A program made the translations under genes and the position numbers. Under the pieces are notes generated by a model. That model was not told the origin of the DNA. It worked only from the letters and a program-made list of their open reading frames with translations, and ran no database searches. From Bordetella genomosp. 2 (lineage in GTDB: Bacteria; Pseudomonadota; Gammaproteobacteria; Burkholderiales; Burkholderiaceae_B), in NCBI RefSeq assembly GCF_002261345.1, contig NZ_NEVT01000008.1:434001-498000 (forward strand): a DNA stretch of 64,000 bases, read 5' to 3'. Shown here one piece after another: positions 2,007-16,280 of the stretch; the stretch's first letter is position 1; every line of letters begins with the position of its first letter.

Positions 2007-2861
2007 ATGCGCCTGGCAGGAAAGACCGCTATCGTCACCGGCGCGGCCGGCGGCATCGGCTCGGCCATCGTGGCCGGCCTGCTGGCCGAAGGCGCACGCG
2101 TCGGCCTGGTCGACGCCGACGCCGCCGCCGGCCGGGCACGCGCCGACGCGCTGGCGGCCGACGGCCACGCCGTCTGCTTCGCCGCGGCGGACGTCGCGCG
2201 CTTCGAGGCGTGCCGGGCGGCCCATGAGACCATCACCCAGGCTCTGGGGCCGGCCGACATCCTGGTCAACAACGTCGGCATCTCGCCCAAGACGGACGGC
2301 CGTGCGCTGAAGGTATGGGAAATGCCGCCCGGGGAATGGGACAGCGTGGTGGCCGTCAACCTCAACAGCGCCTTCTACATGACGCACCTGGTCGCGCCGC
2401 ACATGGTCGGCCAGCGCGCCGGCCGCGTCATCAACATGTCGTCGGTGGCCGGCAAGGCCTATTGCGACATCGTCGGCGCCCACTACGCCGCCACCAAGGC
2501 CGCGCTGGTCGGCCTGACCCGCCACTGGGCGGCCGAACTGGGCGAATACGGCGTCACCGTCAACGCCCTGGCGCCCGGGCGCATCGGCACGCCGCTGCTG
2601 CGCTCCGTGCCGCAGGCCGTCAACGACGCCGTGCTGCGCGTCACGCCGCTGGGCCGCCTCGGCACGCCCGAGGAAGTGGCCGATGCCTGCCTGTTCTTCG
2701 CGTCGGACCAGGCCCGGTTTGTCACGGGCCAGGTGCTGGACGTGGCGGGGGGGCTGGTTGATGACGTAAGACTAGTAAGCGCCACGCTGTGCGGCACGGT
2801 CATGGCGCCCGCCCGAACGCAAGGACGGCGTTATTGCCGCCCATGCCGAAGGAGTTGCTGA
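2007..2861 (+). CDS. Short-chain dehydrogenase/reductase with frameshifted C-terminus
   Basis: A classical SDR: nucleotide-binding TGAAGGIG (residues 11-18), NNVG (88-91), catalytic Ser145 or Ser146, Tyr160 and Lys164. Many relatives are 3-oxoacyl-ACP reductases or alcohol dehydrogenases, but the substrate is unknown here. As read it is 284 residues with a tail after VAGG that does not look like an SDR and runs antisense into the next gene. A run of seven G at 2747-2753 explains this: with six G the frame would end VAGGWLMT and stop at TAA 2767-2769, giving a normal 253-residue enzyme. The catalytic core is intact, so the extended protein could still function. Confidence 0.85.
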   Translation: MRLAGKTAIVTGAAGGIGSAIVAGLLAEGARVGLVDADAAAGRARADALAADGHAVCFAAADVARFEACRAAHETITQALGPADILVNNVGISPKTDGRALKVWEMPPGEWDSVVAVNLNSAFYMTHLVAPHMVGQRAGRVINMSSVAGKAYCDIVGAHYAATKAALVGLTRHWAAELGEYGVTVNALAPGRIGTPLLRSVPQAVNDAVLRVTPLGRLGTPEEVADACLFFASDQARFVTGQVLDVAGGLVDDVRLVSATLCGTVMAPARTQGRRYCRPCRRSC

Positions 2862-4017
2862 TCGCCAGGCGCAGGTCAAGCAATCGGCGCGCCGTACCCG
2901 GTACGTAGTCGAGATCGCACTCCGGATCGCCGCCTTCGAAGAACAAGGTGGGCGGGACGACGCCGCGCTGCACCGACAGCGCCGTGACAGCGGCTTCGAT
3001 GGCGCCGGCCGCACCGATTGCATGCCCGATTGCGCCCTTGATGCTGCTGATGGGCAGATGGCAAGCATGTTCGCCGAATACCTGCTTGATGGCGGCGGTT
3101 TCGATACGGTCGCCCACCAGCGTGCCGGTGGCGTGGGCGTTGATATAACCGATGTCGCTTGCGGCCAAGCCGCCGTCGGCAAGACAGCGCAGCATCGCCA
3201 GCGCCTAACCGCGGGCGTCGGGGTGCACCGGATGGGTCCCGTCGTTGCTGACGCCATAACCACGAAGTTCGGCGATCACGGTGGCATTGCGTGCCCGAGC
3301 GTGTTCGGCGGACTCCAACACCAGCATTGCAGCCCCCTCGCCCAAGGCGAATCCGCTGCGTTTGTGACTGAACGGCCGGCAATAACCACCGCGCGCGTCC
3401 GCAGGCTCGGCGCACAGGACATACAACTGCTTCCACGCCGCCATGAGCGCGGGAGTGAACATCGATTCCGTCCCTCCCGCGATGGCGATATCCAGATAGC
3501 CATCGCGCACGCGGCGGAAGGCTTCTCCGATGGCGACGGCGCCGGCCGAACACGCAGTGGCGTAGGTTTGTGCCTCGGCGACCGACTCCAGCTTCTGCGC
3601 GATCAGCGCCGCCGGGGCATGGGGCATGACGGCGGGCACCACCAGCACCGGGCGACGGGGCCGGATGCCATGGTAAGCCTCGACCGCCTCGCACAGTGTC
3701 GACACGCCGCCGATGCCCGTCCCCACGAAAACGCCACACTCGGACAGGCGGGAAGCGTCCAGGGCCGCTTCCGCGACGGCCTGGTCGGTGGCGTACTGAG
3801 CCAGCAGCGTCACGCGGTCCATCATGCGGGCCTGGCTGGGCGGCGCGGCCCCGGAAACGTCCTCGCGCACATAACCGACACTCTTTTCGATGCCAGGATC
3901 GGGATGCCTGCCAATGCCGCACTTGCCGGCAATGAGCGCCTCGAAAGTTTCCCCAACCGAGCCGCCCAGAGGCGAAGCCATGCCGATAGCGGTGATCAAT
4001 ACACGTCGGCGCATCAT
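2800..4017 (-). pseudogene. Beta-ketoacyl-ACP synthase (FabF-like), interrupted by amber codon
   Basis: A KASII-type condensing enzyme that would be 405 residues. The nucleophile is present in TACSAG (Cys156). An in-frame TAG at 3205-3207 (codon 271) cuts the gene; downstream the same frame goes on with HATGT and GHAIGAAG, which carry both active-site histidines. The truncated product would therefore lack two of the three catalytic residues. A single C-to-T change from CAG would explain the stop. The start ATG at 4017 overlaps the stop of the upstream ACP gene (ATGA), so the two were coupled. This is the last gene of the fimbrial operon. Suppression or reinitiation at Met 3195 is possible but unlikely to give activity. 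Confidence 0.88.
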
Positions 4018-4451
4018 TCGGCGGCCTCCGTACGCTCGGGTGGCTTCCCATTCTTGGCGGCGCCACGCCGAGCGGCCAAGACGGCGCGCGGGTCGGTGGC
4101 GTCGGCCTGCAGCGTGGCGCGACGCGCCGCCACTTCGTGCATATAGGCCATCAAGCCGCTCAAGTTCTTGGGAAACACGCTGGTGATTTCCTGCGCACCG
4201 AGGTTGTGGTCGGTAGGCAGCATTTCGTCTGTGGTCAGTCCGAACTCGGTTTCGATTTCCAGCAGGATCTCGAGCACGGCCATGGAATCGAACTGCGCCA
4301 CGACGGCCCCGAACTCCTGGTCCTCGAGCAAGGGGGCTGACTCGCAGCGGCATGTCGCGGCGATGATGGAGGCCAGCTTTTCTCTCAGCAGCGCGGGCTC
4401 CGGCAGAGATACGGGTGGCAGCGGCGGAAGCAGGGTCGATATGCTTGACAT
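4014..4451 (-). CDS. Acyl carrier protein-like protein in fimbrial operon
   Basis: A 145-residue protein with a phosphopantetheine-attachment motif FDSM (Ser56) followed by the helix AVLEILLEIETEFG and a DEMLPTDHN-type segment, as in acyl carrier proteins. It is longer than a normal ACP (about 80 residues) because of a roughly 20-residue proline-rich N-terminus and a 45-residue Arg/Ala/Lys-rich C-terminal tail. Ser56 could carry the acyl group for the ketoacyl synthase encoded next to it. The ATG lies one base after the stop of the adhesin gene and the 3' end overlaps the synthase by 4 bases, so it is part of the fimbrial transcript. Why a fimbrial operon needs an ACP is not known to me. Confidence 0.78.
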   Translation of the reverse strand: MSSISTLLPPLPPVSLPEPALLREKLASIIAATCRCESAPLLEDQEFGAVVAQFDSMAVLEILLEIETEFGLTTDEMLPTDHNLGAQEITSVFPKNLSGLMAYMHEVAARRATLQADATDPRAVLAARRGAAKNGKPPERTEAAE

Positions 4452-4452
4452 G

Positions 4453-5607
4453 TCAGTTATAGGTGAAAGTCAGGACGGCGCCGGCACGCACCTTACCGGC
4501 GGTCACGGTCGGCTCGACCTGGAGATAGCTGGCGCCGACGCGGAACAACCAGCGGCTGGAAGGCAGTCCTTCGAGCGAGGCGCCCATGCCGTTTTCCACT
4601 TCCCCGAAGCGCGCGTGGCGATACTGGCCGGTTACCGGGTCTGCCAGCCAAACCTGGATGCCGACGCCGCGCGCACTCTGCGAACCCGTTTCCAGGTTGC
4701 TCAGCGTGGCCGGATAACCGGTGACGGGGTTGGTCGGCGTGATTTTGATGCTGGGCGACACATCGCTCGGCGAGCTGCAGGCGAGCTCCAGGTTGGCGGT
4801 CGTAATACCCATGCCTTCGCCGCGTTGCAGCATGTGTACCGGAAGCCCCGGAAGCTGGACAGTCAAGGCGGCGCTATTGCTGACGCTGCAGGTGGGCGGC
4901 GTAATCCGGATGCTTTCCGCCAGGAATACGCGGTACAGCGGTGCAGTGGAAATGGCCCCGCCGCCCGTCAGCGAAGCCCGCCCGAAGATCGAGCCAGCGC
5001 TGATCGTTCCGGGAACGATAGCATCGCCAGTCGCGATGAAATCGATGCGCGTCCGGAGATTAGTGCCCAGCTGATGAGCCCCATTGAACGGGAACACCAT
5101 TACGCCAGCCTTGTACGGGTTGGCGTACTCCACCGGCGCGGGCCGGCTGTCCGTATCGCTGATGTAGTAATAGACGCGGTAGCCGATGCCGGGTACGCCG
5201 GTCGCATACAGATTATTGCCCATCAGCGCGCCGTTGCCGTCGAATCGTTCGATCGTTCCAGCCGGGCAACCATACACCGGCGCCGCTTGTCCCTGAGACC
5301 GGGTGTCACCAAGAAACGGAAGCGGCGTCTCCTGCGTGGAAAACAACAGCTCGCCGGCCGTTACGCGCGGCGGCAAGGCAATGGTCGTTTGCTGCGGCCG
5401 GACGGCCACCTGAAAGAGCGTACTGTTGTATCGGTCGTAAGCCTGCCCGCTGGGTGCCGTGCCGCCGGGATTCTGCTGGCACGCCGCCTGGGCCGACGAA
5501 CTCCAGGCAAAACCTGCGAGCAGCGCGCATATGTGCCAGGCATACCGCCAGCCCTGGCGAAACCGGCTCGGCAGGCCGTAGCCGCGCCTCGTCATGATCC
5601 GACGCAT
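4453..5607 (-). CDS. Fimbrial tip adhesin
   Basis: A 384-residue secreted protein with an N-terminal signal sequence (hydrophobic ICALLAGFAW, cleavage expected after SAQA near residue 42), a large N-terminal domain with two cysteines (probable receptor-binding part) and a C-terminal pilin-like domain starting near PPTCSVSN and containing LACSS. It ends in alternating hydrophobics (VLTFTYN) that fit a donor-strand pilin end. Size, two-domain layout and position after the usher make it the FimH-type tip adhesin. The start at 5607 is supported by a near-ideal ribosome binding site and gives a 16-base overlap with the usher; an internal ATG at 5595 would give a 4-base overlap. The ligand is unknown. 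Confidence 0.8.
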   Translation of the reverse strand: MRRIMTRRGYGLPSRFRQGWRYAWHICALLAGFAWSSSAQAACQQNPGGTAPSGQAYDRYNSTLFQVAVRPQQTTIALPPRVTAGELLFSTQETPLPFLGDTRSQGQAAPVYGCPAGTIERFDGNGALMGNNLYATGVPGIGYRVYYYISDTDSRPAPVEYANPYKAGVMVFPFNGAHQLGTNLRTRIDFIATGDAIVPGTISAGSIFGRASLTGGGAISTAPLYRVFLAESIRITPPTCSVSNSAALTVQLPGLPVHMLQRGEGMGITTANLELACSSPSDVSPSIKITPTNPVTGYPATLSNLETGSQSARGVGIQVWLADPVTGQYRHARFGEVENGMGASLEGLPSSRWLFRVGASYLQVEPTVTAGKVRAGAVLTFTYN

Positions 5608-8108
5608 CTCACCTCCTTGCCGGTCCGGCCGGCCGCGTCGCCGAGTGTCGACGCATCGATCTCGAAACTACACTGCTCCGCGCCGGATGCCCCCCATCTC
5701 ACGGAAAAGCGCCGGGTTCCTTCCAGGCCGGTCAGCCAGACCCTGCCCACCGGACCGACGATGCCGCGCCGCTCGCCGTCGTCCGCATAGACGATGGCGC
5801 CGAACGGCAATTCCATACCGGCAGCGTCCCGCAGCACGATCAGCACCGTGCGGCCGATTTCGGTATCGAACCTGGCCACGACGATGGCGCCGCGGGTCGG
5901 CACGACGGTCTGTACGGTCTGTTTCAGGTACGCATCGTCGGTCTGGTAGTCGGATGCCAGCGAAATGCGGTTTTCCCGGTACGGATTGGCGTAGGGGATG
6001 AGCGCGCGCCCCTCGGCGTTGGTGCGCACGCCTGGCCGCGCGTCGACCCCCACCCCGGCAGCGCCGGGCGCCTCGACGATGATGGCGGTTTCGCCCAGCG
6101 ACTGGCCGAGCAGCACGCCTTTACCATCCAGCAGTATGGCGCCGCTGAAATCGGCGTATGTGTTGGAAGTGTCGCGCGAATAGGCATGGCTGAGGTTGGC
6201 CGTCCCCACCGGCGACGCGTATCCGATCGCCCCGTATCCCGTGGCGCCGCTATGGCCGTTGTCCCCGCGGCCCGAACCGGCCTGCAAGGCATAGGTCAGG
6301 GAGTAGTCGTCGAGCATGGCTCCGTTGAGGCTGACGCCATGGCTGATTCCGTCGCTACGGGTCCGGTTCATCGTATAGCTGGCGCTGTGGCTGCCGCCGA
6401 GCGGGATATTGAGGCTCAACATCACAGTAGACTCACGCGACTGCCAGGGGCTGCGGCTGATCGCATAGTTCAGCGAATAGCCTACCCGGCCAATCGAGCT
6501 CGAATAGCCCAGCTGCGCGTACGTTGCGTTGCCCGAGGGGTTTCGATAGGCAATGCCGTAATAGCTGAGGGAGATTGATCCGTAGCGGTCCAGCCGCTGC
6601 GACACTGACAGCTGGTATTCGTGCTCCCGATCGAAGCCGTGGTGCTCCCGCTTGCCGGCACGTTCGCGGATCGCGTCGTCCAGGCTGCGATAGCCGCCCG
6701 AGTGGTAGCGGTAGCTGGCCAGGGTGAAGTCCGTGCCGGTACCGGGGAAGAACTTCGAATACTGCACGCGCGCGGCGCTGCCAGTCAGGGTATTGCCGGC
6801 CAGGCTACGGGAACGGGAGCTCGTGACATCGACCGACAACGCGCCCAGCGCGCGCAGGTTCGCGGCCACTCCCAGGGCGCCCGCATGGTAGCCGCCCTGG
6901 GCGCTGGTCCAGCCGCCATAGCCCGTCAAGCCATAGGGCAACCCATACGCCAGCGTCACCTGGCCCATCAGCGGACGGTTGGTATCGTAGTTGTGGCGGT
7001 GCTCTCCCACCATGGCGCTGTAGTTCCAGATACCTTCCCGCAACATCGCGGGCAACGCCGAAAACGGCTGGAAGTAGCGGGTGGTCCGGCCGCCCAGTTC
7101 TTCTATCTCGACCTCGAGGTCGCCGCCGCCCGGCGTTGAATACAGATCGTCTATCTCGAACGGTCCTGCAGGCACGAAGGTCGTGTAAATGGCATGGCTT
7201 TGCTGGCGTACGGTCACCTTGGCGTTGCCCGCCGCTACGCCACGGACCACCGGCGCGTAGCCGCGCTGGCTGTCGGGGAGCATGCCGTCGTCGGACTGGA
7301 TCTGCGCCCCTCGGAAGCGGACCGACGTGAAGACATTCCCTGGCGTCGTGCTGTCCCCCATGCGCAACCGCCCGCGCCATGCGGCAATGTCGCGCTCCAT
7401 GTACAGGTCGGACCAGTCCCAGCCTGTATCGTAGCCATTGTCGTAATAGGTTTCATTGCCCCGCAGCCGCCAGGCGCCAAGGTTCAGCCCGTTCCGGAAG
7501 CTGGCGTAGTACGTGTCGTTGGTATGCCTTCCCTGCATGCTGGAAAAGCTGGACCGGTTGTACGACAGCCGATAGGATGACCATAGCGCGGTCGTTCCCG
7601 GATCCCACAAGTGGGCCGGCACCACGCCTCGCGCCTTGCGATCCAGGGCGGCTTGAGGAATGGACAGGTTCATTACATTCTTGTCCTGGTCGTAGGTCAC
7701 CCTGGCGGCAGGAATATGGCCAAGAGTGCGCGCGCAGTCGGCGTCTTGGAGTTGTTCCAGGCCCGGGAAAGCCTGTACCTTTACGCCCAGTTCGCGCAAC
7801 GCCGATACGGACAGGCATGGCTGCGCATCTTCGTGTGCAGATCCCTCGACGAATTCGATCTCGCGCATGCCTAACGTCTGGCCATTGAGTTGCAGGACGA
7901 CCGACCGCACGCCAGGCAGCACCCGGTTGGAAAAGGCAAAGACGGATAAATCCGCTCCCTGCTGATTGCGGTTGCGATGCAGGAAGGTTTCGTCGAATAC
8001 CATGGCTTCTGCCTGCGATTGCGCATTGCTCATGGCGGGTAGCGCCAGGCAGAGCGCAGCAGCGATGCCTGCCCCCGCAGGCCCGCCCAGGAGACGAACC
8101 GGGGTCAT
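5592..8108 (-). CDS. Outer-membrane fimbrial usher
   Basis: An 838-residue PapC/FimD-family usher. It has a signal peptide (cleavage near SNAQ), an N-terminal chaperone-binding domain starting at AMVFDETFLH, a long Tyr/Ser/Gly-rich central region typical of the 24-strand beta barrel with motifs such as FRGAQIQSDDGMLPDSQRG, a DARPGVRTNAEG segment, and a C-terminal domain with the usual cysteine pair (EQCSFE and EVRCVG). It forms the outer-membrane pore through which chaperone-subunit complexes are assembled. The start overlaps the chaperone stop (ATGA at 8108-8105), and the end overlaps the adhesin. The frame is intact and the length is normal. Confidence 0.95.
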   Translation of the reverse strand: MTPVRLLGGPAGAGIAAALCLALPAMSNAQSQAEAMVFDETFLHRNRNQQGADLSVFAFSNRVLPGVRSVVLQLNGQTLGMREIEFVEGSAHEDAQPCLSVSALRELGVKVQAFPGLEQLQDADCARTLGHIPAARVTYDQDKNVMNLSIPQAALDRKARGVVPAHLWDPGTTALWSSYRLSYNRSSFSSMQGRHTNDTYYASFRNGLNLGAWRLRGNETYYDNGYDTGWDWSDLYMERDIAAWRGRLRMGDSTTPGNVFTSVRFRGAQIQSDDGMLPDSQRGYAPVVRGVAAGNAKVTVRQQSHAIYTTFVPAGPFEIDDLYSTPGGGDLEVEIEELGGRTTRYFQPFSALPAMLREGIWNYSAMVGEHRHNYDTNRPLMGQVTLAYGLPYGLTGYGGWTSAQGGYHAGALGVAANLRALGALSVDVTSSRSRSLAGNTLTGSAARVQYSKFFPGTGTDFTLASYRYHSGGYRSLDDAIRERAGKREHHGFDREHEYQLSVSQRLDRYGSISLSYYGIAYRNPSGNATYAQLGYSSSIGRVGYSLNYAISRSPWQSRESTVMLSLNIPLGGSHSASYTMNRTRSDGISHGVSLNGAMLDDYSLTYALQAGSGRGDNGHSGATGYGAIGYASPVGTANLSHAYSRDTSNTYADFSGAILLDGKGVLLGQSLGETAIIVEAPGAAGVGVDARPGVRTNAEGRALIPYANPYRENRISLASDYQTDDAYLKQTVQTVVPTRGAIVVARFDTEIGRTVLIVLRDAAGMELPFGAIVYADDGERRGIVGPVGRVWLTGLEGTRRFSVRWGASGAEQCSFEIDASTLGDAAGRTGKEVRCVGS
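5609..5618 (-). promoter_or_regulatory. Strong ribosome binding site of the adhesin gene
   Basis: On the minus strand the sequence AAGGAGGTGA lies one base before the ATG at 5607 (GGAGG is 4 bases from the start codon). It matches the full anti-Shine-Dalgarno core and sits inside the 3' end of the usher gene. It favours the 5607 start over the ATG at 5595 and suggests that the tip adhesin is translated independently of the usher. Confidence 0.7.
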
Positions 8109-8857
8109 CGTGCATGCGCCCCAGCGGTGTCGTCGGAGGCACCCTGCGGTGGCACAGCCACCCGCGGCCAGACCTCGAGCACGCCGTAATCATTGACGAC
8201 ACTCGGCGTCAGGCTGAAGGTCTGTGCCGCCGGACACTTGCCCAGCGGGATGCGGGTGATATCAAGCGGCCTGGCAATGACCGTGCGACCGAATCCCGGC
8301 GCCTCCCCGGGGATGTCGATGCGAGCGAAATTGACCGTGTAGGCAGATGTATTGTCGATCGACAACGTGCAAGCCTGCCCGTTGCGACTCCAGGCCCATT
8401 TGAGTTGACCTTCGCCGCGTGGCATTTTTTGAATGGCGGCGGGGCGATATAACAATTTGATCCGGGTGCGAGTGGTCAAGACCAGGTTGTTCGGCCCGGC
8501 CTCTTTTTTCTGAGGAATTTCAAGGACATTGATCCAGTAATAGGATTCGCGGTCACCCGGCAGGCCTTTTTCCGCCACGCGGGTGATGTCCAGCCTGCGC
8601 TCCACCCCGCCATCGAAACGGCTCAGCGGTGGAGTGATGAAGAATGGCGTATCCATTTCCTCGGCTTCGCCGTCGATCCAGGCCTGGACAACATAGGAAT
8701 CGTTCGACAGGTTCTTGGCGAAAACGGAGGCATGCCGCTCACCCTCATTCATGATTACGCGGGTGCTCGAAAGCTGAATGGCAGCTTGCGCGGCACCGCC
8801 TGCCATTCCGGTGATCGCGGCGGAGGCCAGCAGTAGATGTCCGATGAGATTTTTCAT
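8105..8857 (-). CDS. Periplasmic fimbrial chaperone (PapD family)
   Basis: A 250-residue periplasmic chaperone. A typical signal peptide (MKNLIGHLLLASAAITGMAGGA, written here only in part) is followed by IQLSSTRVIMNEG, the usual first beta strand of PapD-like chaperones, and by the conserved segments YWINVLEIP and TRIKLLYRP, which carry the subunit-binding basic residue of the G1 strand region. It would donate its G1 strand to fold subunits before delivery to the usher. I chose ATG 8857 over a GTG at 8869 because the signal peptide begins there. It is coupled to the usher by a 4-base overlap and lies about 110 bases after the major subunit gene. Confidence 0.92.
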   Translation of the reverse strand: MKNLIGHLLLASAAITGMAGGAAQAAIQLSSTRVIMNEGERHASVFAKNLSNDSYVVQAWIDGEAEEMDTPFFITPPLSRFDGGVERRLDITRVAEKGLPGDRESYYWINVLEIPQKKEAGPNNLVLTTRTRIKLLYRPAAIQKMPRGEGQLKWAWSRNGQACTLSIDNTSAYTVNFARIDIPGEAPGFGRTVIARPLDITRIPLGKCPAAQTFSLTPSVVNDYGVLEVWPRVAVPPQGASDDTAGAHAR

Positions 8858-8917
8858 GGTGGCAATCACACGGTCGGCACCATGGCCTGCCGATATGCCG
8901 TTGTGAATAAACAGGAA

Positions 8918-8946
8918 GGGGGGGGCCGGACAGACTCGCCCGGCCC
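8918..8946 (-). terminator. G8 tract and hairpin between fimbrial subunit and chaperone
   Basis: The 109-base gap between the subunit stop and the chaperone start holds a run of eight G (8918-8925 on the plus strand, C8 in the transcript) that joins an inverted repeat, GGGCCGG (8923-8929) and CCGGCCC (8940-8946), with a 10-base loop. In the mRNA this is a 7-bp GC stem directly after the subunit gene, with no U-tract. It could protect the subunit mRNA 3' end or dampen read-through so that the subunit outnumbers assembly proteins. The C8 tract could also vary in length, but it lies outside coding sequence. Confidence 0.4.
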
Positions 8947-8966
8947 TTGGGGTAACGCCAGTGGTA

Positions 8967-9494
8967 CTACGAGTACGTCACCTCGAACACCGCCCGGGCG
9001 TTGGCGGGACCAGCAGTGACGGTGCTGTTGACCGCTTCGTAATACGCCTTGAACCGCAGAACGTTCGTGCCATCGACGAGGTTGTACGGGCTCGTCGCCG
9101 TACCGATGGTGATCGGCCCGGCGCTGTCGGCCAGACCCACGGCTACGCCCTGGGCACCAGCGCCGTTCTCCAGGCTCAGCAGACGACCGTCGACGATGCT
9201 GCCGGCGCCCGGCCGGAAGGTGAATGCCGCGGCGCTGGAAACCGTCGTGTCGCAACCGAGCAGGCTGATCTCGAACTCGGTCTCGGGCCCCTTGGAGCCC
9301 ACGCCGGTAAAGACGTTGTTCGAGATGCTGCCCATCGGCACGACCATGTTGGCGCCGAGTTGGCCACCGCCGATGGAGCAAGCCGACGTGGTGATCTCGC
9401 CGACGAAGGAGATATTGCCGCTATCGGCGACAGCCGCCCCTGCCATCGTGCCGAGACATCCGGCGACCAGGATACTGAGGACCTTCTTTTTCAT
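8967..9494 (-). CDS. Major fimbrial subunit (type 1 pilin family)
   Basis: A 175-residue pilin with signal peptide MKKKVLSILVAGCLGTMAGA and mature N-terminus near DSGNISFVGEI. It has the hallmark cysteine pair (TTSACSIGG and LLGCDTT), the segment GTNVLRFKAYYEA, and the C-terminal pattern ARAVFEVTYS with the penultimate aromatic expected of chaperone-usher subunits. It is the first certain gene of the operon and should form the fimbrial rod. It is different from the well-known serotype subunits Fim2/Fim3 only as far as context shows; I have not aligned them. The ribosome binding site is weak, so expression may depend on a strong promoter upstream. Confidence 0.92.
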   Translation of the reverse strand: MKKKVLSILVAGCLGTMAGAAVADSGNISFVGEITTSACSIGGGQLGANMVVPMGSISNNVFTGVGSKGPETEFEISLLGCDTTVSSAAAFTFRPGAGSIVDGRLLSLENGAGAQGVAVGLADSAGPITIGTATSPYNLVDGTNVLRFKAYYEAVNSTVTAGPANARAVFEVTYS

Positions 9495-9949
9495 GGTTTA
9501 GAACCCAAGTAGAACGTTGTAGAAGAAATGCGCGACCGCTGGTGACCGAAGAACGAGCTACCCGGCTTGCCGGACAACCGGCGAACCGCGGATAGCGACA
9601 GAAAGACTCCGGAGCCGAGCAGCCAGTTGCTTGGCCAGAAAACACAGCACCGTATCAACCAGCCCCGCAAGTGGCGATGGTGGCTGACGCCTTTCCGGTA
9701 TTTCAGGTCTGCCGCCATCCAGCGAACCGCGCGGGCTAGACCCCGTGCCAGCAACGGATACCTGAGCATCAGCCGGGAACATGGGTTCGCCCACAGGCGG
9801 TAGCCCAGGTAGGTAATCGGCGTAAAGGCTTGCGCGCAATGACTCGCGTCGAGAACCCAGTCTTCGAACGAAATCAGGTTCTGACGACGCAACTCGTTGC
9901 ACACGATCTTCTGGTCGTAACCGACCCACACCCCCAGTTTTCCCATCAA
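9491..9949 (-). CDS. Hypothetical protein upstream of fimbrial subunit
   Basis: An open frame of 152 codons with no family I recognise. Its first 100 residues look protein-like (VWVGYDQKIVCNELRRQ, YLGYRLWANP, LARGLARAVRWMAADL), while the last 40 look like random translation. The stop overlaps the pilin ATG by 4 bases (ATGA at 9494-9491), the spacing seen elsewhere in this operon, but this can arise by chance. It may be a real first gene, a decayed remnant of one, or leader DNA. The region is less GC-rich than the flanks, as in acquired DNA. Confidence 0.35.
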   Translation of the reverse strand: MMGKLGVWVGYDQKIVCNELRRQNLISFEDWVLDASHCAQAFTPITYLGYRLWANPCSRLMLRYPLLARGLARAVRWMAADLKYRKGVSHHRHLRGWLIRCCVFWPSNWLLGSGVFLSLSAVRRLSGKPGSSFFGHQRSRISSTTFYLGSKP

Positions 9950-10380
9950 TTAGCTCAGTGAGTTTGATCCGTACAAGACACGGCTTGCATGCCATCGACC
10001 GACGCCGGCAAATGAAAGCAAGTGACGGTAGTAAACAGCAGGGGTCACAGCCCAACAAGCCAAGACGACCTGCCTTTTGGACTTCCTCAACGACGTGGAC
10101 CAATAGGAAATTTCCTACATCTCGATGAGAATCTTCCCGCTTCCTTGACACAATGGTCATGGGTAGTTTCGTTAGATGGCTTGCTTGCCCGGAGCAGAGC
10201 CCCGGTACGCGTATTAAATGTAGGCAAAGTGGCGTTGAGGGCCGGCAGGAGAATGCAAGGATGCTTCCGTCCTATTCTTTGACCGCGTTCTTTTCCATGG
10301 CATCTGCAATGCGTAATGTCTCGAACACAGCGACGCCGACGGCAATTCGAATCGCTGGGCCATGAAACGAACTATAGGTA
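9950..10380. other. Regulatory gap between fimbrial operon and sensor kinase
   Basis: This 431-base stretch separates divergent transcription units: the fimbrial operon on the minus strand and a BvgS-like kinase on the plus strand. No convincing gene is seen. It holds a perfect inverted heptad pair at 10104-10117 and a consensus-like TTGACA at 10145-10150 on the plus strand, without a good -10 element at 16-18 bases. The area is relatively AT-rich compared with the rest of the window, as expected for a promoter region. Confidence 0.6.
10104..10117. promoter_or_regulatory. Perfect inverted TTTCCTA heptads (BvgA-type binding site)
   Basis: The sequence TAGGAAATTTCCTA is a perfect 14-bp palindrome made of two abutting inverted TTTCCTA heptads. 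This is the published BvgA recognition motif of the fhaB and bvgAS promoters (established knowledge). It lies 155 bases upstream of the open frame ending at the pilin gene and 264 bases upstream of the sensor-kinase start. I infer that either BvgA or the BvgA-like regulator encoded at 12975-13601 binds here and controls one or both divergent units. Confidence 0.72.
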
Positions 10381-12219
10381 GTGACCATCCTGTACTCCGC
10401 ATCAATTTCGATCCAACAATCACCGCGTGGGCGCCGCAGGTGGGACCTCTCCTTCGCGGCCACCGCCGTTCTTTTCCCCACTATGCCGATGGCCGGGATG
10501 CCACCAGAGATACCGGCAATGGGAAGTCAGGCCTGGTGGCTGTCCCCGCCCTTCTCTATAGTGCTTCTAATCGTGCTGGCGGGCCTCGTATGCGTTCTGA
10601 TCATGCTGTACGGCGCGCTGCGCCAGGAGCGGCGTTCGGTACAGACGCTGAAAGCCCTGATGAAGATGCAACTCGCCGTTCTGGATGCGATCCCTATGCC
10701 GGTCTATCTGCGCGATCGCCAGCTGAATCTCACCGTATGCAACAGCAAGTACCAGTCGGCATGCAGGAAAACACGTGGCGCCCTGAGGAACTCTCCGCTT
10801 GAAGCCATTTCCGGGGTCATGGGAACCAGCACTTCGGACATCGAATCCCTCCGCCGCGATTACCTGCAAGTCATGGAAACAGGCGAACCGCTCATCCAGG
10901 ATCGCACGCTGACGGCCCAGGGAAAAAGAATGGCCTTGCGACACTGGATCGCGCCGCTGCGTGACGCGTCGGCCGGAGTGGCCGGCGTCGTCGGCGGATG
11001 GATCGACGTCACCGATCGCCATCGGGCGCTGGCCGATCTGGCCGATGCACGCGACCGAGCGGAAGCCGCCAACCGTGCCAAATCCACCTTTCTCGCATCG
11101 GTCAGCCACGATATCCGCACGCCCATGAATGCCATCATGGGCATGTTGGAACTGACCCTTCTGCAGACCGCCCTCCCCGCACATGCACGCCAGCAACTCG
11201 AAATGGCGCTACAGGCGGCTCGCTCATTGCTGTCGCTGATCGGCGATCTACTCGACCTATCCAAGATGGAGGCAGGCAAGTTCCAGCTGCAGCCATGCTC
11301 CGCATCTCTACGCGAGGTCGTGCACGAAGTCGCAGGCGTGTTCTCCCCCGTGGCGCACAGCAATGGGGTCGTACTGGAGGCCACGGTCGCGCCATCCGTT
11401 GCGCCGATGCATTTGGTTGATCCCTTGCGTCTCAAGCAGGTGCTCAACAACGTCGTTTCGAATGCCGTGCGCTTCACCAGGCAGGGCCATATCCGGCTCG
11501 AGGTGAAAGCCACGCCGGAGAAAAGGCGGCACCAGTGGGTCGAGTTCACGGTCAGCGATACAGGCATCGGCATCTCGCGCAAGACCCTGCCGGCCTTGTT
11601 CGAACCTTTCGTCCAGGAGCACCCCGAAATCGGCGATCACGGCGCAGGCCTCGGACTCTCCATCTGCAAGCGCCTGGTCGACAAAATGGGAGGTGTCATA
11701 CGCATTGAAAGCAAGTTGGGTCACGGCACGCGGGTCGTCACGCGCCTCCCCTTGCCAGTGGTTTCGAGTACTGCCCTGCAAGCGACCCAGGCATCGGCAC
11801 CCACCGATCCAAACGTGGATGCCGCCCAGGATGACCTACCCATCCTGGTGGTGGACGACCAACCGTCCAATCGCCTGCTGATCCAGTTTCAGTTGCACAA
11901 GCTGGGACACAAGGTGGTATGCGCCGAGGATGGCTTACAGGCGCTGGCCGCCGCCGCGAAGCAACCATTCCAGTTGGTGATCTGCGATTGCGCCATGCCA
12001 GAAATGGATGGCTTTGCGTTCACCCAGGCGCTGCGCGCCCGGCCTGGCGCCAATGCCGCCATCCCGGTCCTGGCATACACGGCTGGCGCACAGGAAACTG
12101 ACGTCAAGCGTGCGCTGGCAGCCGGCATGAATGCGGTGCTGATAAAGCCGGTCAGCATTGCCGATCTGCGCGAGGCGCTACATGCCCATTTGCCGCGGCC
12201 CGGATCCGATCAGCGCTAG
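10381..12219 (+). CDS. BvgS-like hybrid sensor histidine kinase (TM-PAS-HK-REC)
   Basis: A 612-residue hybrid kinase. One membrane segment (about 58-80) is followed by a PAS domain (about 97-210) ending GGWIDVTDR, the phosphoacceptor motif SVSHDIRTP (His243), ATPase boxes (NNVVSNAVRF near 357-365, DTGIGIS near 393-399, GAGLGLSI near 421-428) and a receiver with VVDDQ (490-494), phosphoacceptor Asp536 (ICDCAMPEMDG) and the LIKP lysine. The PAS-to-H-box linker resembles BvgS, but the periplasmic Venus-flytrap domains and the C-terminal HPt domain of BvgS are absent. The GTG start is uncertain: ATGs at 10483 or 10498 are alternatives. It faces the HPt gene tail to tail and probably feeds phosphate to it. 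Confidence 0.88.
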   Translation: MTILYSASISIQQSPRGRRRWDLSFAATAVLFPTMPMAGMPPEIPAMGSQAWWLSPPFSIVLLIVLAGLVCVLIMLYGALRQERRSVQTLKALMKMQLAVLDAIPMPVYLRDRQLNLTVCNSKYQSACRKTRGALRNSPLEAISGVMGTSTSDIESLRRDYLQVMETGEPLIQDRTLTAQGKRMALRHWIAPLRDASAGVAGVVGGWIDVTDRHRALADLADARDRAEAANRAKSTFLASVSHDIRTPMNAIMGMLELTLLQTALPAHARQQLEMALQAARSLLSLIGDLLDLSKMEAGKFQLQPCSASLREVVHEVAGVFSPVAHSNGVVLEATVAPSVAPMHLVDPLRLKQVLNNVVSNAVRFTRQGHIRLEVKATPEKRRHQWVEFTVSDTGIGISRKTLPALFEPFVQEHPEIGDHGAGLGLSICKRLVDKMGGVIRIESKLGHGTRVVTRLPLPVVSSTALQATQASAPTDPNVDAAQDDLPILVVDDQPSNRLLIQFQLHKLGHKVVCAEDGLQALAAAAKQPFQLVICDCAMPEMDGFAFTQALRARPGANAAIPVLAYTAGAQETDVKRALAAGMNAVLIKPVSIADLREALHAHLPRPGSDQR

Positions 12220-12232
12220 GCGCGCCCCCAAG

Positions 12233-12913
12233 TCATTTCAGCGCCGCCAACACCGCCAGCACGCGCTCGACGGCTGGCACATAAATGGCATGTAGGGCCC
12301 GCAGGGTATCCGCCTGCTGCTGTTCTGCCAGGACCTCGATGCGTTGGCTAAGCCTAGCCAGCGAGGCCGTTCCCGCCATATGCGCGGTGCCCTTGATGCG
12401 ATGGGCACGGGCGCGAACTTCTTGCCAATGCTGGGCGGCACAGGCTTGTTTGAAGCAAAGCAGGTCGGCCGATGTGGTGTCTATGAGGCTGGCTACGAGC
12501 TGCGCGATGATCGCGGTATCTCCCTCGACCAACCCGCTGATGTGCTGACCAATGGCCGGACATTCGCCGGGCAACGGCAGCAAATAGCCCGAATTGGCTA
12601 GCGCGGTGGCAATGACGCCTTCCGTAATGGGTTCGGGCAGGACTCTCCCGATGTACGCAGTGTTATCTGAAGCGCTGCCGACAACAAGTTGAATGGCATC
12701 GGATAACCCGGCGTCCCTCCATTGGGCTGCCGTAGGAGGCGGATCTCCCGGCGCTAGGCGGACAATAGCGACGGCATATGCCAGCGGATCTTTCGGCACG
12801 TCGTCGAAACCAACAGATTCGCACACGGCAAGGCTCAACCAGGAGAGCGCATCAGACAGCCCGCTGCCAGCGGCCCAGCCGGGGATGCGCGAAATAACCA
12901 GGGCATTGTGCAT
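12233..12913 (-). CDS. Stand-alone histidine phosphotransfer (HPt) protein
   Basis: A 226-residue protein whose C-terminal part (about 120-226) is an HPt domain with the phospho-His motif RARAHRIKGTAHMAG (His171). The first 115 residues have alternating hydrophobic strands that recall a receiver fold without its phosphorylatable aspartate; this part is inference. In BvgS, HK, receiver and HPt are fused; here the HPt is a separate gene that could take phosphate from the receivers of the two nearby hybrid kinases and pass it to the regulator upstream of it. The gene starts 61 bases after the regulator gene on the same strand and ends 13 bases from the convergent kinase gene. Confidence 0.83.
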   Translation of the reverse strand: MHNALVISRIPGWAAGSGLSDALSWLSLAVCESVGFDDVPKDPLAYAVAIVRLAPGDPPPTAAQWRDAGLSDAIQLVVGSASDNTAYIGRVLPEPITEGVIATALANSGYLLPLPGECPAIGQHISGLVEGDTAIIAQLVASLIDTTSADLLCFKQACAAQHWQEVRARAHRIKGTAHMAGTASLARLSQRIEVLAEQQQADTLRALHAIYVPAVERVLAVLAALK

Positions 12914-12974
12914 AAATGGATGAATATCGGCAGGGTATTTGACTCAGGCAACCGGCAAATAGAACCACGAGGAT

Positions 12975-13601
12975 TCAGCGAGCGGCATCCTGTTTTCGGG
13001 CGAAATCAACCAGCTCCACCAGCGACCTGACACCGAGCTTGTTCATGAGCCGCGTCTTGTAGGTACTGACAGTCTTGTTGCTGATGTAGAGTGCGTCGGC
13101 AATTTCTTTATTGGACATCCCACGCACGAGCATCTGCATGACGATCAATTCCTTGTTGGACAGCCCGTCAAGCGCGTAGGCCCCGGCGGGTCTGCCCGCG
13201 ACGCGCTGCGATCGGTCTATGTCGGGGAAAATGGTGTAGCCCGCCATGACCGCTTCTACAGCACGAACGATTTCGGGCATCTCCTGAGCCTTGCTGATGT
13301 AACCCTGCCCTCCGGCGGCCTTGACGCGCGGGGCAAAGACAATCGGATCCTGCCCTGAAATTACCAGGATGCGAACATGGGGTTGCAGCGCCTTCATGCG
13401 CGGGATGGCCTCCAGGCCGTTCATCCTCGGCAGGTCGATGTCCAGGACAATCAGGCCGGGGGCATGCTCACGCACTGCCTGAATGGCATCCTGGCCATTA
13501 CCGGCTTCAAGAATGCCAGTCACACCGAGAATCTGAGACAAATGCTGCCTCAGCACCAACCGTAGGGAAGGATGGTCGTCGACGATGAGTACGGTGGTCA
13601 C
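12975..13601 (-). CDS. BvgA-like response regulator (NarL/FixJ family)
   Basis: A 208-residue regulator, almost exactly the length of BvgA (209). The receiver has VDDHPSLR, phosphoacceptor Asp54 (VLDIDLPRMNG) and an ISGQ/SKAQ switch and lysine region; the C-terminal LuxR-type helix-turn-helix (about 147-200) contains LSNKELIVMQML, MSNKEIADALYISNKTVSTYKTRL (long run split: MSNKEIADAL, YISNKTVSTYKTRL) and LVELVDFARK, which closely resembles BvgA as I remember it. Its likely targets are the neighbouring divergent fimbrial and kinase promoters. It is 4 bases downstream of the second hybrid kinase gene, so the pair is coupled. Confidence 0.92.
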   Translation of the reverse strand: MTTVLIVDDHPSLRLVLRQHLSQILGVTGILEAGNGQDAIQAVREHAPGLIVLDIDLPRMNGLEAIPRMKALQPHVRILVISGQDPIVFAPRVKAAGGQGYISKAQEMPEIVRAVEAVMAGYTIFPDIDRSQRVAGRPAGAYALDGLSNKELIVMQMLVRGMSNKEIADALYISNKTVSTYKTRLMNKLGVRSLVELVDFARKQDAAR

Positions 13602-13605
13602 GAAA

Positions 13606-15315
13606 CTAGTTTATCCATTTTTCGATGCACTGCCGCAAGGTCTCGGCAGTGACGGGCTTGATCAGGTGGTCGTCGATATCGGCGTCGCGACAACGCTGCA
13701 TCTCGTCGGCACCGAGATGGGCGGTCAGCATGATGATGGGCAAGCGACGCCCGCTATCGGTCTCCTGCGCACGTACACGACGGGCCAGCTCGCAGCCATC
13801 CATTCCGGCCATGCCAAGATCGGTGAACAACATAGCGTAGGACCGATTGGCCAACGCAACCAGGGCCTGGGCGCCGTCAGCAACGGCATCGCATTCGAAC
13901 CCTGCCTTGATCACCAATTGCCGGAGGATGATTCGATAGGGCTCGTGATCGTCAACTATCAGGATCCGCGCCTGCATGGCGGCGGTTTGGCCCAGCGGCT
14001 CCGACAGCATGGCAGCGGCGATTTCCGGTGATCCAGCTGCCTTGTCGATCGGTATCGTGGCAACCCTCAGCGGTAGGCGTACTTCAAATGTGCTGCCCAT
14101 TCCCAGAGTACTGCGGAACCGGATGGTCCCCCCCAGGAGCTCAGCCAATTGGCGGCAGACTGCCAAACCCAGCCCGCTGCCCCCGTACTGACGGGCAATC
14201 GACACGTCGGCCTGCGTGAACGGCTGGAACAACTGGCTTTGAACTGATTCGGGGATACCAATACCGGTATCGGTCACTGACAGGACAATCCATTGCGGAT
14301 CGGCACTGAGAAGGGAATCGATCCGCACGGAAACGACGATGCTGCCTCGCGCCGTGAACTTGACCGCATTGCCGAGCAGATTGAGGGCAATCTGTTTTAT
14401 GCGGACAGGGTCGCCGAGCAGCCAAGGTGCTATCCGACCATCGATATCGAGGGAAAGTTCGAGTTGTTTGCGGCGTACCTGGGCATCGAATACCCGTAGG
14501 ACCTCTTCAAGTAGAACGGGCAGTTCAAACGGCACGGATTCCGGCTTGGCGTTGCCCGCTTCCAGCCGTGAGAAATCAAGGATATCGCCAATGATTTCCA
14601 TCAGCAGGCGGGCAGCATTGTCCGCCTGGTCGAATTGGTTGCGCTGGAATGGATCCAGCGCGGTGTCGCGCAAGAGATCCAGCGCGCCGATCAGCGTGGC
14701 CAGCGGGGTACGGATTTCGTGGCTCATGGCCGCGAGGAAACGGGCTTTGGCTGCGGCGCTGGCTTCGGCTGCGGATTTGGCCTGCGCCAGTGCCTGCGCC
14801 TGCTCATGTTCAGCGGTGGTATCGACCCAATAGCCTTTCCAGCTGACTGAACCATCGGCATTCTGTTCCGGCCGCCCCGTGCCCAGACGGATCCAAGCGG
14901 ATTCCTCATCGTGGCGAACGCGTACATCGATCAGGATGGGACTGGAGTCGGCGATGGATCGTTCGATAGCTTGGCTGATCATGGGCCGGTCTTCGTCGAA
15001 CACGCACTCATGCCAACGAGCGCCGTTGGCCATAATCTCCTCGGCGGGCAGGCCTATGAAAACTTCCGTGCGGCCGGTCACGTAGGGAAAATACTGGCGG
15101 CGCTCAGCATCCAGCCGCAAATGGAATAGCGCCACTGGCATCGCCTTAGTAATGCTGTCGATAGCATGCTGGATCTCGGAGGCGTGCCTCTGAAGCGCAG
15201 CATGCTCACGCCGCCGTTTCGAGCGATCGAGCAGCAGTGCCATCACGGTAACCAAGCCAATGGGCAGGAGCAGCCCGAATATGACCGTCCAGGCGGCCTG
15301 GGTTGGGTTGGCCAT
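13606..15315 (-). CDS. Second hybrid sensor histidine kinase (TM-PAS-HK-REC)
   Basis: A 569-residue hybrid kinase with a single N-terminal membrane helix (about 9-29), a PAS/PAC region (about 45-170) and a coiled linker rich in Ala and Gln. The H-box is AMSHEIRTP (His199), the N-box NLLGNAVKF, the G-boxes DTGIGIP and GGSGLGLAV; the receiver has VDDHEPY and Asp499 (FTDLGMAGMDG). It lacks a large periplasmic sensor, so it probably senses an internal or membrane signal. ATG 15315 follows a GGGAGG ribosome binding site. It lies 62 bases after a LysR gene and 4 bases before the BvgA-like regulator. Confidence 0.9.
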   Translation of the reverse strand: MANPTQAAWTVIFGLLLPIGLVTVMALLLDRSKRRREHAALQRHASEIQHAIDSITKAMPVALFHLRLDAERRQYFPYVTGRTEVFIGLPAEEIMANGARWHECVFDEDRPMISQAIERSIADSSPILIDVRVRHDEESAWIRLGTGRPEQNADGSVSWKGYWVDTTAEHEQAQALAQAKSAAEASAAAKARFLAAMSHEIRTPLATLIGALDLLRDTALDPFQRNQFDQADNAARLLMEIIGDILDFSRLEAGNAKPESVPFELPVLLEEVLRVFDAQVRRKQLELSLDIDGRIAPWLLGDPVRIKQIALNLLGNAVKFTARGSIVVSVRIDSLLSADPQWIVLSVTDTGIGIPESVQSQLFQPFTQADVSIARQYGGSGLGLAVCRQLAELLGGTIRFRSTLGMGSTFEVRLPLRVATIPIDKAAGSPEIAAAMLSEPLGQTAAMQARILIVDDHEPYRIILRQLVIKAGFECDAVADGAQALVALANRSYAMLFTDLGMAGMDGCELARRVRAQETDSGRRLPIIMLTAHLGADEMQRCRDADIDDHLIKPVTAETLRQCIEKWIN

Positions 15316-15377
15316 CGTCAAGCCTCCCAAAGCGTCGTATGGGCGCGAATGAGAGTAGCGTACAACGATGGGCCAAC

Positions 15378-16280
15378 TCAGCATATAGCGGGATGCTGCG
15401 CCAGTTCGTCGACGATGAATTCGACGAAGGCGCGCACCTTGGCCGCCACATGCCGGCGCGAGGGATATACCGCGTAGATGTAGGTTCCAACCATCGACCA
15501 GTCGTCGAGCACGGTACGCAGCCGGCCCTCGGCCAGGTCTTGCCGAACGTAGGTGAGAGGAATCAGGCTGACGCCAAAGCCGGCCCTTAGCGCATCGCGC
15601 ACGGCGAGGCTGGAGTTGACACGATAACGGCCCCTGATGGCGACCCGTACGCTTTGCCCGGCACGCTCGAACACCCACTCGTCGGCATGGCCCGACAGGC
15701 TGAAGCGAATGCAGTTATGCGCCTGCAGCTCTTCCGGACTAGCAGGCACGCCATGCTCTTCGAAATACGACGGAGCCCCACACAGCACGTGGGTCAACAA
15801 CGTGAGCCGGCGCGCAACCAGGTTGGAGTCTTCGAGGCGGTCGCTGCCGCGAATTGCCAGGTCAAAGCCTTCCCGGACAATGTCCACGCGACGATCATCC
15901 AGATGCAGATCCAGGGATAAATCAGGATAAGCCCGCAAAAAGCGGGGAATGGCCTCGGACAGCCCAATGAGGGTCAGCGACATGGGTGCACTGACACGCA
16001 GCACGCCGCTGGGCCGGGACTGCATGGGCCCTAGTGAGCGGCCAGCCTCGTCGAGATCGTCGAGGATGCGGACGATCTGGTCGTAATACAGAGCGCCGGC
16101 CTCCGTAAGGCTCATGCGTCGGGTAGTGCGATTGAGGAGCCGCACCTGCAGATGGGCCTCGAGCTCGCCGACATTCTTGCTGACAGCCGCAGGCGACAGT
16201 CCCAGCTGTCGTGCAGCGTGAGCGAAGCTGGTTAGTTCGACTACCCGGCGAAAGACTCGCAGTGCAGTGAGATGATCCAT
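15378..16280 (-). CDS. LysR-family transcriptional regulator
   Basis: A 300-residue LysR regulator with an N-terminal winged helix-turn-helix (MDHLTALRVF; SFAHAARQLGLSPAAVSKNV; LLNRTTRRMSLTEAG) and a C-terminal co-inducer domain ending SRRHVAAKVRAFVEFI. It belongs to the DsdC/AaeR-like group that often controls a divergent enzyme gene. The divergent nitroreductase at 16468 is the obvious candidate target, and an inverted repeat sits between the genes just before its own start codon, which suggests autoregulation. It is followed 62 bases later by a hybrid kinase gene on the same strand. Confidence 0.9.
   Translation of the reverse strand: MDHLTALRVFRRVVELTSFAHAARQLGLSPAAVSKNVGELEAHLQVRLLNRTTRRMSLTEAGALYYDQIVRILDDLDEAGRSLGPMQSRPSGVLRVSAPMSLTLIGLSEAIPRFLRAYPDLSLDLHLDDRRVDIVREGFDLAIRGSDRLEDSNLVARRLTLLTHVLCGAPSYFEEHGVPASPEELQAHNCIRFSLSGHADEWVFERAGQSVRVAIRGRYRVNSSLAVRDALRAGFGVSLIPLTYVRQDLAEGRLRTVLDDWSMVGTYIYAVYPSRRHVAAKVRAFVEFIVDELAQHPAIC

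What the first reader, a model, noticed from the sequence alone, without database searches (positions are those of the whole stretch)
2800..10117. Chaperone-usher fimbrial operon carrying an acyl carrier protein and a ketoacyl synthase
Seen: subunit, chaperone, usher, tip adhesin, ACP and KS lie on one strand with overlaps of 4-16 bases or one base gaps, so they read as a single operon. A phosphopantetheine ACP (Ser56, with an unusual Arg/Ala-rich tail) and a FabF-like enzyme are not part of any chaperone-usher system I know. Inference: they could make an acyl group for the fimbria, for membrane adaptation or for a small metabolite linked to adhesion. The KS is broken by a stop codon here, so the system may be active only in sister lineages.
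Basis: partly seen in the sequence, partly recalled or inferred. Interest (0 to 1): 0.78.

Follow-up and report, generated by a model that had tools for sequence, protein, structure and literature searches.

The report
Fimbria operon with fatty-chain-making genes
One family of bacterial surface hairs in Bordetella and its relatives was found, in every genome seen, together with two genes that normally build fatty chains, which suggests that these hairs come with a custom-made fatty group; in the strain read here one of the two genes is broken.

Summary
The linkage is not local: among 268 family genomes the ACP is found in 19 loci of 18 genomes, and the usher clade (>=44% identity) in the same 19 (one split over two contigs); the next ushers (<=41%) lie in genomes without this ACP. 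KS is intact in 17 of 19 loci, with C-H-K-H invariant; ACP Ser is invariant in 19 of 19; dN/dS is well below 1 for all seven genes. The KS form one clade apart from FabF and NodE. The nearest relative among those compared is an ACP-KS pair in another Bordetella locus with a C39-peptidase exporter. UP is an unnamed domain that elsewhere ends exported-type proteins. Best reading: a chaperone-usher fimbria with its own acyl-ACP module (NodF/NodE-like in logic) that acylates something exported or surface-bound. Acceptor and transferase are unknown; no chemistry was tested. The papers searched gave no description. New variant of a known kind.

The parts
9491..9946 (-). UP: conserved 151-aa protein, first gene of the operon, overlaps the pilin start by 4 bases
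   Evidence: same place in 18 of 18 loci where visible, window included; dN/dS 0.11-0.20 in six pairs of relatives, 0.13 and 0.28 window against two relatives
8967..9494 (-). major pilin subunit
   Evidence: PF00419 E 7e-18
8105..8857 (-). periplasmic chaperone
   Evidence: PF00345 E 3e-34
5592..8108 (-). outer-membrane usher
   Evidence: PF00577, PF13954, PF13953
4453..5607 (-). two-domain tip adhesin; C-terminal pilin domain; signal peptide by eye
   Evidence: PF00419 at 235-384 E 2e-8; two orthologues weakly MrkD-like, below cut-off
4014..4451 (-). acyl carrier protein with Ser56 and a tail that varies in length and sequence among relatives
3208..4017 (-). ketosynthase, part before the stop (holds the active-site Cys)
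   Evidence: FabF-type, E 6e-56
3205..3207 (-). in-frame TAG that interrupts the KS
   Evidence: 1 TAG inside the match
2800..3204 (-). ketosynthase, part after the stop (holds both His and the Lys)
   Evidence: PF02801 E 7e-29; dN/dS 0.095-0.099 against two relatives

Best explanation
This is a chaperone-usher fimbrial operon of one clade, seen so far only in the Bordetella/Achromobacter family, with a built-in acyl-chain module. The ACP carries an acyl chain on its Ser-bound phosphopantetheine and the KS lengthens it with a fixed choice of substrate, drawing reductase and dehydratase steps from the cell's fatty acid synthase, as NodF/NodE are known to do in rhizobia (recalled). Shown: gene linkage, catalytic residues, selection. 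Inferred: the chemistry. The chain is then moved to an exported or surface component that serves the fimbria, most likely a polypeptide or an envelope lipid (inferred; acceptor and transferase unknown). In the window's strain the KS is interrupted by a stop that looks recent, so the acyl step should be off there while the other genes of the operon read intact.
For: One-to-one linkage of ACP and usher clade: 19 loci in 18 of 268 genomes by both searches (in G177 the two lie on different short contigs). Gene set UP-pilin-(pilin 2)-chaperone-usher-adhesin-ACP-KS recurs. ACP and KS overlap or lie within 38 bases in the 17 loci measured and overlap by 4 in the window. C157, H296, K328, H333 invariant in 17 intact KS. 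ACP Ser invariant in 19 of 19. dN/dS of KS 0.04-0.15 and ACP 0.10-0.27 in seven pairs. KS is the best conserved of the seven proteins, mean 69.5% in 15 loci. KS clade single, 100/100 and 100/99, with loop GMGGNN where the two FabF compared have GFGGTN and the NodE compared AMGGTN. KS and ACP distances correlate at 0.87. The nearest KS among those compared lies in a peptide-export locus, and UP-type domains end exported-type proteins. Controls: usher operons of other clades beside bvg in four sister genomes and one in G034 show no ACP or KS match.
Against: No acyltransferase was recognised in the operon or among gene families shared by seven or more loci (families of three to six loci were not annotated one by one). 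ACP and KS distances follow the fimbrial genes only loosely (ACP 0.36-0.55, KS 0.58-0.72, against 0.58-0.87 among the four fimbrial genes), and L035 groups differently in the KS and usher trees, so the module has probably been exchanged at least once. A lipobox pattern appears in only 2 of 17 adhesins and 0 of 18 pilins, so lipoprotein-type lipidation is not indicated. KS is broken in the window and split in G089 (L030), 2 of 19. No expression or chemistry was tested.
Confidence: 0.5

Rival explanations
1. ACP and KS make a lipid, signal or small metabolite that is only co-expressed with the fimbria (sessile-state membrane change or secreted lipid); nothing on the fimbria is acylated.
For: No recognised acyltransferase or common lipobox in the operon; an amino-acid permease stands upstream in 9 of 19 loci (Pfam for one), which would suit an N-acyl amino acid; three plasmid ACP-KS pairs that I looked at lie in other small gene clusters, two of them metabolic-looking.
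Against: The pairing with one usher clade only, and with none of the other usher operons looked at, asks for a specific tie to this fimbria.
Confidence: 0.27
2. UP is the acyl acceptor: a small polypeptide acylated by the ACP-KS product, in the manner of fatty-acylated ribosomal peptides (class recalled), that acts at the cell surface with the fimbria.
For: UP is in all 18 loci where its place is visible; its domain ends proteins beside HlyD and peptidase-domain ABC genes in the three plasmid loci looked at, of ten records matched, one with a double-glycine-like leader by eye, and an RTX protein; the sister ACP-KS pair sits with such an exporter and a weakly LpxL-like protein; an invariant Cys is present.
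Against: UP in the fimbrial loci has no leader and no exporter was recognised beside it, and the UP-type plasmid loci show no ACP-KS in the stretches listed.
Confidence: 0.13
3. Passive linkage: ACP-KS is a hitch-hiker with no role for the fimbria.
For: Loose distance correlation and one tree conflict; KS broken or split in 2 of 19 loci.
Against: Linkage kept in 19 loci of 6 genus groups with strong purifying selection.
Confidence: 0.05

Closest known systems
Classical chaperone-usher fimbriae (LpfC/FimD-type ushers)
   Same: Pilin, PapD-type chaperone, usher with PapC_N/PapC_C, adhesin with a C-terminal pilin domain
   Different: Carries ACP, KS and UP, which no such system known to me holds; five fimbrial operons of other clades in the family showed no ACP or KS match
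NodF/NodE of rhizobia (specialised ACP + KS; function recalled)
   Same: Overlapping ACP-KS gene pair with no other synthase enzyme directly beside it; Met at the KS gate position
   Different: KS 38-42% identical and in another branch; linked to fimbriae, not Nod factor genes; no acyltransferase recognised
ACP-KS peptide-export locus of G097, a genome of the B. trematum genus group (L039 10465-2261)
   Same: Overlapping ACP-KS; KS sister to the fimbrial clade among those compared, 97/93; in the reverse search its ACP finds, besides itself, only fimbrial-locus ACPs (G004, G015, G121; E 3e-7 to 8e-7)
   Different: Has a double-glycine-leader-like peptide (by eye), a weakly LpxL-like protein, a C39-ABC exporter and HlyD in place of fimbrial genes
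Bordetella petrii fimbrial clusters (PMC2572626, passages seen)
   Same: G001 has the exact length of B. petrii DSM 12804 (5,287,950 bp); by its position its copy should be the published cluster Bpet4129-4132 (inference)
   Different: The passage lists subunit, chaperone, usher and adhesin per cluster; 'acyl carrier' and 'ketoacyl' do not occur in the main text

Membership tests
Chaperone-usher fimbriae | PapD-like chaperone, usher with N- and C-terminal domains, pilin subunit | tested here: met
   PF00345, PF00577, PF13954, PF13953, PF00419 all above cut-off
Chaperone-usher fimbriae | Fibre on the cell surface | not testable with these tools
   Needs microscopy
Acyl carrier protein | DS[LMI] attachment serine in an ACP domain | tested here: met
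   Ser invariant 19 of 19; PF00550 3.5e-5 in L028, above cut-off, 0.0024 in L024, below it; PDB profile match to ACPs E 0.006; the window protein alone is below threshold
Acyl carrier protein | Phosphopantetheine on the serine | not testable with these tools
   Needs mass spectrometry
FabF-type ketosynthase | Cys-His-His triad plus Lys, ketoacyl-synt N and C domains | tested here: met
   Invariant in 17 intact relatives; PF00109/PF02801 in L028
FabF-type ketosynthase | Intact reading frame in the window's strain | tested here: not met
   TAG 3207-3205
Housekeeping FabF | Groups with the genome's own FabF | tested here: not met
   Own FabF is a separate gene on contig C8, 35-38% identical over the 340 residues that I used; operon KS clade 100/100 apart
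NodF/NodE | KS groups with NodE | tested here: not met
   The one NodE used joins a Xanthomonas KS (97/93) outside the operon clade
NodF/NodE | Specialised acyl product | not testable with these tools
   Needs lipid analysis
Fatty-acylated exported peptides (C39 exporter type) | Precursor with leader, acyltransferase and exporter in the locus | tested here: not met
   Among gene families shared by seven or more of 19 loci, shadow frames aside, the only additions were an APC permease and two-component proteins, besides a second pilin; UP has no leader

The most novel reading that the evidence does not exclude
A fimbria whose assembly or adhesion depends on a dedicated acyl-ACP pathway: ACP and KS make a special acyl chain that is put on UP or another exported partner, so that the fimbria works with a lipidated component, a mechanism shared with an unrecognised class of acyl-modified, C39-exported peptides.
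Probability: 0.2. Interest if true: 0.85.

Novelty: new variant of a known kind. Interest (0 to 1): 0.62.

Why it matters
Chaperone-usher fimbriae are treated as pure protein fibres assembled outside the cytoplasm. A clade that, in the 268 family genomes searched, was not found without its own ACP and ketosynthase implies a fatty acyl step tied to adhesion, in a family that includes respiratory bacteria of animals and people. It is directly testable in environmental relatives. It also brings up a domain (UP) without a model in the libraries searched, shared by fimbrial operons, exported-type proteins and a phage protein.

Tried and rejected
Considered and rejected: a chance neighbourhood (19 loci); a housekeeping FabF copy; the TAG as a sign of long decay (the two KS parts keep dN/dS 0.15-0.17 and 0.10 against two relatives; dS is 1.0-1.3 in these pairs, so the values are rough). 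UP as an acyltransferase by eye: dropped, because no Pfam, NCBIfam, PHROG or PDB match supports it and several residues invariant among the fimbrial UP are not kept in its distant relatives.

Led nowhere: structure prediction of UP (switched off); UP in phages with a fimbrial query (none; a Vibrio query later found three records) and in viral contigs (none); the fimbrial ACP of L028 on plasmids (none). The ten paper searches listed no description of a fimbria-linked ACP-KS; two had longer lists than shown (15 of 30; 15 of 296), and most subscription papers are not held. I opened only passages of PMC7828420, PMC3669393, PMC5560535 and PMC2572626. Whether the B. avium BAV1965-1962 fimbriae (named in PMC5560535) are this operon was not tested; the original paper is not held.

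Limits: candidates scored per genome were at most 3 (usher), 9 (ACP over the order), 10 (UP over the phylum) and 14 (UP over a class); one genome per species; the KS tree has 7 or 8 KS from outside, taken from a plasmid search and two genomes, so 'nearest' means among these. Dropped rows: G097 was taken out of the 19 matching genomes because its locus is of another kind; window, L030, L036 and L037 are not in the 15-locus table; window and L030 KS are not in the KS trees. The own-genome FabF row in the trees is a 340-residue part. Of four UP-type matches in the class search G1302 (944-aa open frame) was fetched but not resolved. Corrections: the window's UP was given without its start codon and last codon; the first KS piece was given in a wrong frame and found nothing; one search is the valid one.
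Full report
What is there. The block lies on the minus strand. Reading order: UP 9946-9491, pilin 9494-8967, chaperone 8857-8105, usher 8108-5592, adhesin 5607-4453, ACP 4451-4014, KS 4017-2800. The chaperone/usher, usher/adhesin and ACP/KS reading frames overlap by 4, 16 and 4 bases, adhesin and ACP are one base apart, and UP overlaps the pilin start by 4 bases. Only pilin to chaperone has a gap, 109 bases. The KS frame is cut by a TAG at 3207-3205. Domain matches are; the window's ACP alone is below family thresholds, but L028's passes PF00550 and a profile of 19 orthologues finds solved ACPs, weakly, at E 0.006.

Is it a system? A search of 268 family genomes with the ACP matched 19. One of these, G097, is a different locus (below). 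The other 18 genomes hold 19 loci, two of them in one Achromobacter genome. I fetched up to 20 kb around each of the 18 other loci and looked for the window's genes. KS follows ACP in all 19, window included. Pilin, chaperone and usher stand upstream in 18 (in L030 the pilin is turned round); the nineteenth (L036) ends at its contig end, and a usher 77% identical to L037's lies on another short contig of that genome. The adhesin is found in 17; in L037 a pilin-domain protein stands in its place. UP stands first in all 18 loci where its place is visible. A second pilin is seen in several loci and an amino-acid permease upstream of UP in 9 of 19 (Pfam for L028's).

The reverse test. A usher search of the same 268 genomes gave 26 matches at E <= 1e-150 (at most three candidates scored per genome). 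Nineteen have 44% identity or more and belong to the 19 ACP loci (G177's on another contig); seven have 41% or less and lie in six genomes with no ACP match. The operon around one of those (G034, L061) has no ACP or KS match. In the window's genus 6 of 9 genomes have the ACP, and the other three gave no usher match either. A sample of 399 genomes of the order gave the ACP profile in two genomes only, both of the family. So ACP-KS and this usher clade come and go together, as far as these searches see.

7 and 12, B. trematum, Achromobacter sp. Root83 (two copies), A. kerstersii, an Achromobacter MAG, Corticimicrobacter populi, Paenalcaligenes suwonensis. G001 has the exact length given for B. 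petrii DSM 12804 (5,287,950 bp; PMC2572626, passages).

Is the module alive? In seven pairs of loci dN/dS is 0.04-0.15 for KS and 0.10-0.27 for ACP; in six pairs it is 0.11-0.20 for UP. Seventeen KS are intact; Cys157, His296, Lys328 and His333 never vary. L030 is split. The window's KS is the other broken one; its two parts, compared apart with two relatives, give 0.15-0.17 and 0.10, so the stop looks recent. Intact copies exist in sister species.

What kind of KS? The operon KS form one clade with full support and a long stem. They are 35-40% identical to the two housekeeping FabF compared (one of them a 340-residue part) and 38-42% to one NodE. The gate loop reads GMGGNN in all 17, GFGGTN in the two FabF, AMGGTN in the NodE. 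The closest KS among those compared is that of G097 (97/93 with the operon clade; long branches and few outgroups, so provisional). In G097 the order is: a 70-aa peptide with a double-glycine-like leader (by eye), ACP, KS overlapping the ACP, a 344-aa protein with weak LpxL-type matches (E 0.001-0.01, below cut-off), a C39-peptidase ABC exporter whose best NCBIfam match, below cut-off, is an NHLP bacteriocin exporter, HlyD, MacB. Searched back at E <= 1e-6, its ACP finds, besides itself, only fimbrial-locus ACPs in the family (G004, G015, G121).

What is UP? No Pfam, NCBIfam, PHROG or PDB match of note. Distant relatives lie on ten plasmid records, eight Rhizobium and two Vibrio; the three looked at have HlyD and peptidase-domain ABC genes beside them, the UP-type proteins being 191-222 aa, the Vibrio one with a double-glycine-like leader by eye. 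Others end an RTX protein (L091) and a phage HMO-2011 protein. So both the ACP-KS type and the UP type recur, separately, in peptide-export loci. That is the main clue to function: acyl chemistry on exported polypeptides. It is guilt by association.

Results against a tight tie. ACP and KS distances agree well with each other (0.87) but only loosely with the fimbrial genes (ACP 0.36-0.55, KS 0.58-0.72), and L035 sits with L036-L038 in the KS trees (97/92 and 90/90) but with L033/L034 in the usher tree (100/100). The module has probably been swapped between operons at least once. No transferase was recognised among gene families shared by seven or more loci, and lipobox patterns are rare (2 of 17 adhesins, 0 of 18 pilins).

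Place in the genome. The plus-strand kinase 10381-12219 and, on the minus strand, the HPt protein, regulator and second kinase between 12233 and about 15474 match in order the BvgS1-HPt-BvgA-BvgS2 set described for B. petrii (PMC2572626, passages; Pfam; the second kinase here also has a PAS fold, which the paper does not name for BvgS2). The regulator is 71% identical to one at 4.72 Mb in G001. In four of five sister genomes examined a different usher operon (33-35% identical, no match to ACP or the KS C-terminal part) stands beside these genes, and none does in the fifth. So regulation by bvg is plausible here but not shown.

Mechanism. Shown: linkage, order, catalytic residues, selection, the stop. 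Inferred: the KS extends a chain on the dedicated ACP; the chain reaches an exported or surface partner; in this strain that step is off. The acceptor is open: UP, pilin, adhesin, or a lipid. Verdict: a real and, in the papers searched, undescribed variant of a chaperone-usher system.

Noticed in passing
window 10381-15474: Two hybrid histidine kinases, an HPt protein and a LuxR-type regulator in the order described for the B. petrii Bvg system, next to the fimbrial operon; in four of five sister genomes looked at another fimbrial operon without ACP-KS match stands there.
   Followed up: partly
L039 10465-2261 (G097): ACP-KS pair with a double-glycine-leader-like peptide, weakly LpxL-like protein, C39-ABC exporter, HlyD and MacB: a possible locus for an acylated exported peptide.
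   Followed up: partly
L064 7638-8273, L065 7671-8246, L091 2273-5188, L093 3066-5354: A domain of about 100 aa (C..L/F.R ... GY..WA.P...LM) at the end of exported-type proteins and of a phage protein; no Pfam, NCBIfam or PHROG model matched.
   Followed up: partly
L030 4272-4799: In G089 the pilin gene is turned round relative to the operon; only short imperfect inverted repeats lie near. The KS there is split as well.
   Followed up: partly
L026, L027, L028, L029, L030, L031, L033, L034, L035, upstream of UP: APC-family amino-acid permease upstream of the operon in 9 of 19 loci (Pfam for L028's).
   Followed up: partly
L072 1-7233 (NZ_CP047538.1): A Salmonella IncHI2A plasmid record that carries a chromosome-like fabH-fabD-fabG-acpP-fabF-pabC-yceG-tmk-holB stretch.
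   Followed up: no
L065 1-16237: Vibrio europaeus plasmid: the UP-type gene and its exporter lie beside genes annotated as a YopT-type protease and a TcdA/TcdB-type domain protein (annotation only).
   Followed up: no
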